A stretch of DNA of 64,000 nt from contig JAKSKE010000001.1 of the NCBI GenBank assembly GCA_024401895.1, forward strand, positions 1-64,000, written 5' to 3'. Position 1 is the first letter of the stretch, and every line of letters starts with the position of its first letter. Under the pieces are notes generated by a model, which was given only the letters and a program-made list of their open reading frames with translations, made no database searches and was not told the DNA's origin. This DNA is from Bacteroidales bacterium. Lineage in GTDB: Bacteria > Bacteroidota > Bacteroidia > Bacteroidales > UBA932. Of the stretch, positions 2-2,882 are shown one piece after another. Both the position numbers and the translations under genes were made by a program.

Positions 2-2203
2 GGATTCAACGAAGGCTTCTCGGACTCAACCCCTCTCTGGGGACTTTATCCCTACCGGGCCGATGCCACTGCAGACAATTCCTCCGTCACCACAACTCTC
101 CCTGCAACTCAGACTGGAAGGGCCGGATCCTTTGCCAAGGGCACGTTCATTACCCTGGCCAGGTCCCAGAGTCTGAAGATGGGATTCTACAATGTCTGCG
201 GAGGAGTTCGTTTCTCGCTCGTGAACGACAATATAAAGGAAGTTGTATTCGAGGGAAAGAACGATGAGAACCTTGCCGGAAAGGTGAAACTCGCTTTTGA
301 CGGAGGCTATCCCGTAGTATCCAAGGTCGAGGGCGAAGAGAAGGCCATCACCCTCACTGCCCCTGGCGGAGGCTGCTTCGAGAAAGGGAAGTGGTACTAT
401 ATCGTCGCCCTGCCCGGGACATTGAGCAGCGGCTTCAAGATGACCTTCAACACTGCCGACGAGTATGCTGTGCGCTCTTCATCAAGTTCGGTGACCATCA
501 AGCGCGGAGTCTTCGGCTCCATCGAGGATGTTGACCAGGGGCTGATATTCATACAGAAGGGCACAGACCCTGTAGGGGACAATATCGTGTTCAAGGACCC
601 TGCCGCCAAGTTTGCCTGCGTTGCCAAGTACGATACTAACGGTGACGGTGAGGTGTCCATTGCCGAGGCCGAGGCTGCAACTTCATTCAGCGGACTGTTC
701 ACTAATTGGAAGGGCGTAACAAGCTTCGATGAAATAAAGTATTTCAAGAACGTCCACAGCATCAACGAACTGTTCGATGGCTGCACCAAGTTGGTGTCAA
801 TTACCATTCCCGAGAATATCACCGACCTTGGAACATATGCATTCCGTGGTTGCTCATCGCTCACATCTGTGAACTTACCGTCCAATATCACTACAATTGG
901 AAGTTATTCCTTCAATAACTGTTCGAAACTTGCTACCATAGAAATCCCGTCAAAGGTGGCTTCAATAGGCGGTAGTGCTTTTGGTGGATGTTCTTTGCTG
1001 ACTACAGTTGATTTGCCTTCAAATGTTACTTCAATAGGAGATTATGCTTTTGGCGGTTGTTCGAATTTGTCCTCTATTGGAATTCCTTCCAAAGTTACTT
1101 CAATAGGTTCATCTGCATTTTCCGGTTGTTCAGCTTTGAAACAGATTTCAATTCCAAACGGAGTGACATCGCTTGGAACTTTTGCCTTCAGCGGCTGTTC
1201 ATCTTTGACTGCCGCAAATATCCCTTCCGGAATATCATCCGTTCCGGGTTATTGCTTCGAGGGCTGCATATCCTTGACATCTGTTTCTATCCCTTCAAAT
1301 GTAACATCTGTTGGCACTCGCGCCTTCTACGGTGTTAAGCTTTGGAAACTGGAGTTGCCTTCTTCTGTCTCGTCTCTTGGAAGCAATTGCTTCGGAAGTG
1401 ATATAATTTGTGTTTTACTTCCTGCGACATCTCCCGTTTCCATTCAATCTGATGCATTTGGTGGTGTGATAGGAATATTCGTCCCTGCGAATATGATAGA
1501 GATGTACAAGGTAATGACAAACTGGTCGAATTATTCTGGTAAGATACATCCGATAAGTTCATATAGGGAAAAGAACGCGTTCACCCTCGCCACCAGCGGA
1601 GCGGTGGATATGGGAACCTCCGTAAAATGGGCGGCCTGCAACCTTGGAGCATCAAAGCCTGAGGAATATGGCGGCTACTACCAGTGGGCCGGAACCCAGG
1701 ATGTCACCAGCACCAGCATATATCTTGACTGGAGAAATTGCCCATACCATACTGGTTCAACTTGGGAAACAGGCTGGACCAAATACATTCCGTCAGATAA
1801 ACCATCATATTGGTCCGGCGCCGGCAGTCCGGACAATAAGACCGTACTTGACCCGGAAGATGACGTGGCTCACGTGACATTAGGTGGTAACTGGCGAATA
1901 CCAACTAGAGAAGAGTTTGAGGAATTGGAAAATAATTGTGTAAGGGAATGGACTGCATATCAGGGCATCAATGGTAGAATGGTGTATGGTATTGGCTCAA
2001 GTAACAAGATATTCTTGCCCGCTGCGGGCTCTCGCAGCGGCGACTTCCTCAGTAATGTCGGGTCCAACGGCTACTTTTGGTCTTCCTCGCTCTATACGGA
2101 CGACCCTTGCAGCGCGTACGGACTCTACTTCGATTCGTACGACGTGGGCACGGTCGACTACGGCCGTTGCCGCGGGCGGTCTGTGCGTCCCGTTTCAGAA
2201 TAA
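2..2203 (+). CDS. BspA-type leucine-rich-repeat surface protein with C-terminal FISUMP-like domain (5' partial)
   Basis: The reading frame is open from base 2, so the gene begins before the window and its signal peptide is not visible. Order of parts seen: a fimbrillin-like beta-rich region (about 2-590), a calcium-loop motif DTNGDGEVSIAEA (about 632-670), then about ten LRR_5 repeats of roughly 23 residues (780-1480; pattern 'IPSxVTSIGxxAFxGCSxL'). A C-terminal domain (about 1600-2200) starts DMGTSVKWAACNLGA and ends with GYFWSSS and SVRPVSE, typical of Bacteroidota FISUMP / C-type-lectin-like domains. The likely role is a cell-surface adhesin or ligand-binding protein. The LRR segment is clearly more AT-rich than both flanks, which suggests mosaic origin. 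The last 180 bp resemble a DGR variable region and are listed separately. Family assignment is firm; the ligand is unknown. Confidence 0.85.
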   Translation, partial: GFNEGFSDSTPLWGLYPYRADATADNSSVTTTLPATQTGRAGSFAKGTFITLARSQSLKMGFYNVCGGVRFSLVNDNIKEVVFEGKNDENLAGKVKLAFDGGYPVVSKVEGEEKAITLTAPGGGCFEKGKWYYIVALPGTLSSGFKMTFNTADEYAVRSSSSSVTIKRGVFGSIEDVDQGLIFIQKGTDPVGDNIVFKDPAAKFACVAKYDTNGDGEVSIAEAEAATSFSGLFTNWKGVTSFDEIKYFKNVHSINELFDGCTKLVSITIPENITDLGTYAFRGCSSLTSVNLPSNITTIGSYSFNNCSKLATIEIPSKVASIGGSAFGGCSLLTTVDLPSNVTSIGDYAFGGCSNLSSIGIPSKVTSIGSSAFSGCSALKQISIPNGVTSLGTFAFSGCSSLTAANIPSGISSVPGYCFEGCISLTSVSIPSNVTSVGTRAFYGVKLWKLELPSSVSSLGSNCFGSDIICVLLPATSPVSIQSDAFGGVIGIFVPANMIEMYKVMTNWSNYSGKIHPISSYREKNAFTLATSGAVDMGTSVKWAACNLGASKPEEYGGYYQWAGTQDVTSTSIYLDWRNCPYHTGSTWETGWTKYIPSDKPSYWSGAGSPDNKTVLDPEDDVAHVTLGGNWRIPTREEFEELENNCVREWTAYQGINGRMVYGIGSSNKIFLPAAGSRSGDFLSNVGSNGYFWSSSLYTDDPCSAYGLYFDSYDVGTVDYGRCRGRSVRPVSE
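2015..2203 (+). other. Candidate DGR variable region (VR) at the 3' end of the LRR gene
   Basis: Seen: between 2093 and 2173 nearly every codon at a putatively exposed position ends in C or T and starts with two variable bases (tat, gac, gac, tgc, agc, tac, tac, gat, tac, gac, ggc, gac, tac, ggc, tgc, cgc), and none is AAC or AAT. This is what adenine-specific mutagenesis of AAC/AAT codons in a template repeat would leave. The framework codons between them (L, T, P, A, F, S, V, R) are conventional. The tract ends in an apparently fixed tail coding SVRPVSE and the stop (2180-2203), the place where an initiation-of-mutagenic-homing site would lie. Known: Bacteroidota DGR targets often end in a C-type-lectin fold with WSSS...SVRPV. 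One codon (gga at 2120) does not fit. No template repeat or reverse transcriptase is in the window, so this is inference. Confidence 0.55.
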
Positions 2204-2402: not shown

Positions 2403-2548
2403 CGCCAAAGTGGGTTTTGGTAATACGCTCGGGAGGCAGCTACAGGCAGGGTGCGCGCACACCCACTAGGCCATAATGACGGGGTGGGTTTTTCCGAAAC
2501 AGCCTCCCAGCAGGCTACAAGGCACACCGCCGCACACCCACTTTGGCG
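2403..2548. repeat. Three nested inverted repeats (candidate structured RNA or repeat element)
   Basis: Outer arms are CGCCAAAGTGGGT (2403-2415) and its exact complement ACCCACTTTGGCG (2536-2548). Middle arms are GGGAGGC (2431-2437) and GCCTCCC (2502-2508). Inner arms are ACCCAC (2461-2466) and GTGGGT (2484-2489). The three pairs nest in order, giving one long arm of about 146 nt, and the structure could form on either strand. Function unknown; no known riboswitch or RNase P / tmRNA consensus was recognised. Confidence 0.5.
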
Positions 2549-2606
2549 GAACTCCGGTCACACGGCACCGTTTGCGCAGTCGCCGGTACGCCTAGCTTAC
2601 AATCTT

Positions 2607-2676
2607 TGGCAAGTGGCGCCGAATGGCCAAATGTGGCAAGAATAGAGCCAGATGCCAAGTGTGGCAAGTGGCGCCG
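2607..2676. repeat. 15-bp direct repeat
   Basis: TGGCAAGTGGCGCCG occurs at 2607-2621 and again at 2662-2676, 55 bp apart. A shorter related TGTGGCAAG lies between them at 2632-2640. It is part of the repeat-rich gap downstream of the LRR gene. Confidence 0.6.
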
Positions 2677-2799
2677 GAGGGCAAGGGACTTCGGACGGCG
2701 TAGCCGCCCGTGGCTCGTGAACGGGAGGAGCCTGCGCCGAAGGCGTAGGAGGGATAGCACCGAAGGTGCGTACCGGTCCGAAGCCCCTTGCCCTCCGGC
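2673..2799. repeat. 24-bp imperfect palindrome enclosing GAA-loop hairpins
   Basis: The left arm 2673-2696 and right arm 2776-2799 are reverse complements over 24 bases with one mismatch (A at 2688). The 79-base interior holds two small stems each closed by a GAA loop: TGCGCC-GAA-GGCGTA near 2730-2750, and GCACC-GAA-GGTGC near 2757-2769. This looks like a REP/BIME-type mobile palindrome or a cruciform. It sits about 80 bp before the lspA stop and could end transcription on either strand. Confidence 0.55.
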
Positions 2800-2882
2800 T
2801 CCCCCCAGAAAAACTTCCATTGGCCACAGGCTCCGTGGACGATATAGGCATTTATGTCCACGAATACGAGTTTGCGCCCAAG

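What the first reader, a model, noticed from the sequence alone, without database searches (positions are those of the whole stretch)
2015..2203. Likely diversity-generating retroelement target region at the end of an LRR surface protein
From 2093 to 2173 the surface-type codons all look like AAC/AAT codons whose A's were replaced (gac, tgc, tac, ggc, cgc, agc and so on, third base C or T), with no AAC/AAT left. The framework codons are intact and the tract ends in a fixed SVRPVSE tail. C-type-lectin-like ends with WSSS...SVRPV are known DGR targets in Bacteroidota. Coupling to a BspA LRR array would give a hypervariable adhesin. No reverse transcriptase or template is in the window, so this would be a remote target.
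Basis: partly seen in the sequence, partly recalled or inferred. Interest (0 to 1): 0.85.

Follow-up and report, generated by a model that had tools for sequence, protein, structure and literature searches.

The report
Remote target of a DNA-diversifying retroelement
The last stretch of this bacterial leucine-rich-repeat protein gene carries the one-sided codon pattern and the DNA hairpins of a site that would be rewritten by a diversity-generating retroelement, whose template and reverse transcriptase are present in related genomes but were not found in this incomplete one.

Summary
The gene at 2-2203 (733 aa, cut by the contig end) joins BspA-type LRRs to a C-terminal domain that models confidently and aligns best with C-type-lectin-like folds. 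At the 14 codons where a genus-mate's template reads AAC/AAT, the window keeps the third base in 13 and never keeps AA. In 50 other such ends from the genus, first and second bases vary at these codons while the third is conserved, the reverse of framework codons. A genus-mate (G124) holds a complete diversity-generating retroelement (DGR) with this SVRPVS tail; its template matches one local and two remote targets with changes almost only at template A. The window's stop codon is followed by two hairpins that are over-represented after such targets; the first has a GAAA loop, as known DGR target hairpins do. Against the simple reading, this genome (76% complete) shows no DGR reverse transcriptase or template, and most genomes with this tail look the same (full RT in 3 of 47, matching template in 1). 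So this is most likely a DGR-made remote target; whether it is still rewritten or is a leftover stays open. Orphan targets are known from Treponema denticola; here they are the usual state.

The parts
2..2203 (+). Target gene, 733 aa, open at the contig start: N-terminal part, BspA-type LRRs, C-terminal Lcl_C/FISUMP-like domain
815..1399 (+). LRR region (LRR_8 residues 272-314; LRR_5 best stretch residues 343-466, E 4.7e-70)
1580..2203 (+). C-terminal domain modelled as C-type-lectin-like (mean pLDDT 94.9)
2030..2203 (+). Predicted variable repeat (start approximate); core of rewritten codons 2093-2173
2174..2203 (+). Conserved tail (G-R-SVRPVSE-stop), shared with templates and targets of the genus; likely place where cDNA transfer begins
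   Evidence: role inferred from PMC3240598
2208..2241 (.). Hairpin 1: 11-bp stem, 2x2 internal loop, 2-bp stem, GAAA loop, 4 bases after the stop codon
2275..2297 (.). Hairpin 2: GC-rich stem around a TGCGCAAGCG core with a GCAA loop

Best explanation
The 3' end of this LRR gene (about 2030-2203) is most likely a variable repeat that a diversity-generating retroelement is predicted to have rewritten in trans, by copying an AAC/AAT-rich template RNA with errors at its adenines and pasting the cDNA over the end of the gene. The fixed SVRPVSE tail and the hairpins after the stop codon would be the landing site, as in the Bordetella phage element. The changed codons would alter exposed residues of a C-type-lectin-like tip carried on an LRR stalk and so change what the protein binds. 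Shown: the codon signature, the confident model, the hairpins, and a complete cassette with the same tail that matches remote genes in a genus-mate. Inferred: that such a cassette made this tract, that the varied residues bind a ligand, and that the cassette lies in the missing part of the genome, on an unbinned element, or has been lost.
Against: No RT, template, or accessory-ORF match in the own genome. RT is not enriched in genomes with this tail: 3 of 47 versus 36 of 353. GGA at 2120 does not fit, and 14 non-A bases differ from the foreign template. Two further tail copies in G124 (L075, L077) do not match its template. 56 of 75 VR stops lack the two-part hairpin. Foldseek alone gave no match at E <= 0.001. 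Among homologues, near-identical alleles have unchanged variable stretches.
Confidence: 0.86

Rival explanations
1. Frozen leftover: a DGR made the tract in an ancestor, then template and RT were lost, and the end now evolves like ordinary coding DNA. This shares the origin with the main reading and differs only in present activity; the confidence is for 'no longer rewritten'.
For: No RT or template in the assembled 76%; of 25 tail genomes at least 90% complete and at most 5% contaminated, 1 has a full DGR RT. In a 663-aa homologue family nine alleles with 1-7 framework differences share all 56 variable residues, 36 of 36 pairs. Target genes in Treponema denticola isolates lacking the core DGR were read as leftovers (PMC4891356, passages).
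Against: The hairpins are still foldable in RT-less genomes: 13 of the 15 genomes with the two-part form have no full DGR RT in my lists. Homologue pairs with 3-7% framework difference show variable-stretch differences of 0-3% or 32-64%, mean 41%, so ends still change, in jumps.
Confidence: 0.4
2. Cassette exchange among paralogous ends by homologous recombination, with no reverse transcriptase: the genus keeps many copies of this domain and swaps their ends.
For: Several copies per genome, three of 75 VR ORFs with two such stretches; change in jumps; some homologues share identical variable stretches despite up to 6% framework difference.
Against: Swapping would not free the first two bases while holding the third at just the AAY columns, nor give 0-2 non-A differences of 128 against an AAC-rich template beside an RT. 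The own genome has only two other Lcl_C-type ends and neither looks like a donor.
Confidence: 0.06
3. Ordinary diversifying selection on an exposed loop of a surface protein.
For: The domain family is large and paralogous (7576 proteins at E <= 0.001, capped candidates).
Against: Selection on residues does not explain the conserved third base with unconstrained first and second bases, the match to templates beside RTs, or the hairpins.
Confidence: 0.03

Closest known systems
Bordetella phage BPP-1 DGR and its mtd target (PMC3240598, abstract and passages seen)
   Same: VR at the 3' end of a gene with a C-type-lectin fold, hairpin a few bases after VR with a GRNA loop, changes at template A
   Different: BPP-1 has RT, template and target side by side; here they were not found in the genome. 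The window's hairpin has an internal loop and a second hairpin follows
DUF1566 / Fib_succ_major DGR targets of human microbiomes (PMC4159848, PMC6642488; passages seen)
   Same: C-terminal domain of the same Lcl_C/FISUMP kind
   Different: In the passages I saw those targets were found with their DGR; LRR coupling not mentioned there
Remote and orphan targets of Treponema denticola (PMC4891356; passages seen) and remote targets of cyanobacteria (PMC7517822; passages seen)
   Same: VR genes far from the core, or in isolates with no RT or template
   Different: There relatives of the same species hold the core; here the orphan state spans many species of one genus
   Same: Same genus and SVRPVS tail; template matches remote VRs
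   Different: Its template is not the window's own: framework bases and length differ

Membership tests
DGR target gene (variable repeat) | 3'-end repeat that differs from a template mainly at template A | tested here: met
   Met against a foreign template of the genus (24/36 A, 14/81 other) and by the column pattern; the window's own template was not available
DGR target gene (variable repeat) | C-type-lectin-like fold at the C-terminus | tested here: met
DGR target gene (variable repeat) | Hairpin or cruciform just after VR | tested here: met
   2208-2241, 0 of 200 shuffles fold as well, GAAA loop; hairpin function not testable here
Complete DGR in this genome | DGR-type reverse transcriptase | tested here: inconclusive
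   Absent from the assembled 76%; none in the window
Complete DGR in this genome | Template repeat matching the target | tested here: inconclusive
   No second copy of tract or tail in the assembled 76%
Complete DGR in this genome | Accessory protein (Avd or other) | tested here: inconclusive
   No match to the G124 238-aa ORF (no positive control in that genome); Avd itself not searched
Active DGR target | A-site variation between strains or in reads | not testable with these tools
   No close allele of this gene found; no reads

The most novel reading that the evidence does not exclude
In this genus the hypervariable ends are standing landing sites rather than parts of resident retroelements: LRR, Ig-like and TIR proteins keep lectin-like tips with two-hairpin landing pads, and a travelling RT-template cassette visits, rewrites the repertoire in trans in one episode, and is lost again.
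Probability: 0.27. Interest if true: 0.78.

Novelty: new member of a known kind. Interest (0 to 1): 0.55.

Why it matters
A large DGR survey states that its method would not detect remote targets (PMC8144416, passage). Here the targets were reached from the VR end, and most lie in assemblies with no DGR RT. If that is biology rather than assembly loss, the reach of DGRs in these Bacteroidales is undercounted and diversification may come in episodes supplied in trans. The codon signature plus the post-stop hairpins offer a way to find such sites without an RT.

Tried and rejected
Own-genome searches for RT, template, tail copies and the accessory ORF were empty. One search scored at most two candidates per genome. 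A first scan for window-like templates in 31 loci gave only unspecific A-rich scores apart from the window itself; its second part found two DGRs of other types (L025, L030). The exact tail TCTGTCCGTCCCGTTTCAG was not in IMG/VR. RT relatives in plasmid and phage records are all under 60% identical; of the 80 viral loci kept of 280 some hold templates with SVRPVQ tails, none with SVRPVSE in the script's listing. RNAalifold on the MAFFT alignment of 24 hairpins gave 0 pairs; I made no structure-fitted alignment, so the hairpin claim rests on control stops, not on covariation. No PDB sequence match. The nearest of 400 genus genomes at lspA-ileS is 75% identical, so no sister species could be compared. 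Intrinsic terminator for hairpin 1: no T-run follows it in the sequence. The A-biased-pair scan (26 of 30 RT loci with a pair, L117 and L122 weak; none in L124, L126, L129, L132) had no shuffled control.

Rows dropped: one search uses 50 of 80 segments (27 of other length, 2 templates and the window left out). The 75 VR stops come from 50 genomes and are not independent. The single control stop with hairpin 2 lies in L154, itself fetched as a template-query match, so it may be a VR that my filter missed.

Full report
Setting. The window is bases 1-64000 of contig C1 (66,632 bases) of an unnamed assembly, G000, 1,446,097 bases in 64 contigs, 76.03% complete. The gene runs from the contig start to 2203, so its N-terminus is missing. 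Pfam sees BspA-type LRRs (LRR_5, E 4.7e-70) and an Lcl_C match at residues 574-731 under the curated cut-off; NCBIfam a weak FISUMP match. Two homologues are labelled Candidatus Cryptobacteroides; that this is the window's genus is a guess.

The codon pattern. Codons 2093-2173 have no AAC/AAT, and nearly all surface-type codons end in C or T, with GGA at 2120 as an exception. Against the template of genus-mate G239 (L122) the window differs at 24 of 36 A and 14 of 81 other bases, p = 3e-7. I then collected ends of this type from the fetched genus loci: 80 distinct segments, 53 of the window's length, 2 of those templates. In the 50 others, the 14 columns that are AAC/AAT in the G239 template have majority-base frequencies of 0.45, 0.55 and 0.86 at codon positions 1, 2 and 3; the 26 framework columns 0.88, 0.88 and 0.74. 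Position 3 is the most conserved in 14 of 14 AAY columns and 4 of 26 framework columns. The window keeps the third base in 13 of 14 and AA in none. This is the reverse of ordinary coding evolution.

A complete retroelement with the same tail. The tail DNA (up to 2 mismatches) occurs in 47 of 400 genus genomes, six times in G124. One of the six in G124 ends an AAC-rich template that lies between a 238-aa ORF without family match and an RT gene, downstream of a VR gene. Over 180 bases this template differs from the local VR at 22 of 52 A and 1 of 128 other bases, from a VR on contig C35 at 19 of 52 and 0 of 128, and from one on C1 at 25 of 52 and 2 of 128; two further tail copies (L075, L077) do not match it this way. 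So a DGR with this tail has rewritten genes elsewhere in its genome. Matches to the RT at E <= 1e-8 are in 39 of 400 genus genomes, the weakest of doubtful type. The 15 aligned RTs carry mostly IGNLTSQ or a variant where I recall DGR RTs to have [IVL]GxxxSQ; phage RTs, with Bordetella phages among the organism names, are among the relatives. Templates with SVRPV tails were seen in L114, L115, L122, L125 and L126, that is G124, G321, G239, G385 and G307.

The missing cassette. The own genome has no RVT_1 match, no match to the G124 RT or to the RT profile, and no other copy of tail or tract. RVT_1 alone is not a safe test: G048 has a DGR RT but was not among the RVT_1 rows. Of the 47 tail genomes 3 have a full-length DGR RT (G124, G048, G281), and only G124 a template with this tail in what I looked at; of the 25 tail genomes at least 90% complete and at most 5% contaminated, 1 has such an RT. 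RT presence is not enriched among tail genomes, 3 of 47 versus 36 of 353, p = 0.6 (this assumes that searches drew the same 400, as their handles suggest). Yet the mechanism has left its mark in such genomes. In G182 (90% complete, no RT match) three VRs differ pairwise at 15, 18 and 21 of 28 first or second AAY bases, 0 of 14 third AAY bases, 2-4 of 52 first or second and 2 of 26 third framework bases, as copies of one absent template would. Other same-genome pairs are less clean, and over all same-genome pairs the contrast with between-genome pairs is small (0.64/0.22/0.15/0.27 against 0.63/0.24/0.19/0.39). Loss in binning may contribute: the RT contigs of G124, G321 and the related L282 are 16.0, 4.2 and 4.6 kb.

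Frozen or live. Among 240 homologous proteins (the best 120 of each), pairs under 3% framework difference differ on average at 2% of variable residues (26 pairs, the nine-allele family left out), pairs at 3-7% at 41% (25 pairs, values 0-3% or 32-64%). In the 663-aa family nine alleles share all 56 variable residues in 36 of 36 pairs. The ends change in jumps. No close allele of the window's gene is in the listed rows (best 76% over 197 aa), so its present activity is unknown.

Hairpins. Four bases after the stop codon lies a hairpin with an 11-bp stem, a 2x2 internal loop, a 2-bp stem and a GAAA loop; 0 of 200 shuffles fold as well (2208-2241). In BPP-1 a hairpin or cruciform just after VR is needed for efficient homing, stem structure counts more than its sequence, and phage elements share a GRNA loop (PMC3240598, passages). 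In this genus 19 of 75 VR stops have a two-part hairpin within 20 bases against 6 of 400 stops of other ORFs; with energy -9 or lower 18 against 1. The 19 come from 15 genomes and about eight stem sequences. 56 of 75 do not show this form. A second hairpin with a TGCG...GCG core follows in 13 of 75, the window's at 2275-2297 among them, against 1 of 417. Related ends are not independent, so the p values overstate.

LRR coupling. 4 of 75 VR ORFs have three or more LRR motif hits (window copy L067, L050, L153, L157); Pfam confirms LRR_5 and Lcl_C in the three others, from G300, G400 and G292, none with an RT match. A search for papers holding diversity-generating retroelement, leucine-rich repeat and variable repeat gave none, in an open-licence library only.

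Verdict. By signature, fold, landing-site hairpins and kinship to a complete element this is most likely a remote DGR target. That it is still rewritten is not shown. New member of a known kind; the orphan state across the genus is the more interesting part.

Noticed in passing
P0202, P0217 (352 and 354 aa): TIR domain joined to the same C-terminal domain with a SVRPVSE/SVRPVTE variable end; P0217 is labelled a Candidatus Cryptobacteroides TIR protein. A DGR target with a TIR domain is known elsewhere (PMC10907252, passages).
   Followed up: partly
L074:690-1406 and similar ORFs in L114-L120: A 230-260-aa ORF without family match sits between VR gene and template in several of these cassettes, where other loci of the set have a 110-140-aa ORF.
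   Followed up: partly
L064, L072, L077, L096, L105: Only the last bases of the VR tail are present, joined to unrelated or out-of-frame sequence; remnants, deletions or assembly joins.
   Followed up: no
P0079, P0085-P0091, P0093 and P0094, P0109, P0112: Homologue families whose variable stretches stay identical between close alleles and differ in bulk between groups.
   Followed up: partly
P0001, P0085, P0108; L071, L079, L088: Proteins with two or three copies of the variable domain, in some cases with Ig-like domains between.
   Followed up: no
L030 (G029), L025 (G076): DGRs with other template types, one in the genus and one in the same order.
   Followed up: no
L204, L205, L212, L235 and other IMG/VR loci: Viral contigs with DGR templates of related type ending in SVRPVQ or SVRPVR.
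   Followed up: no
window 2403-2802: Noncoding stretch between the target gene and lspA with direct repeats and inverted repeats, among them 27-nt arms at 2670-2696 and 2776-2802.
   Followed up: no
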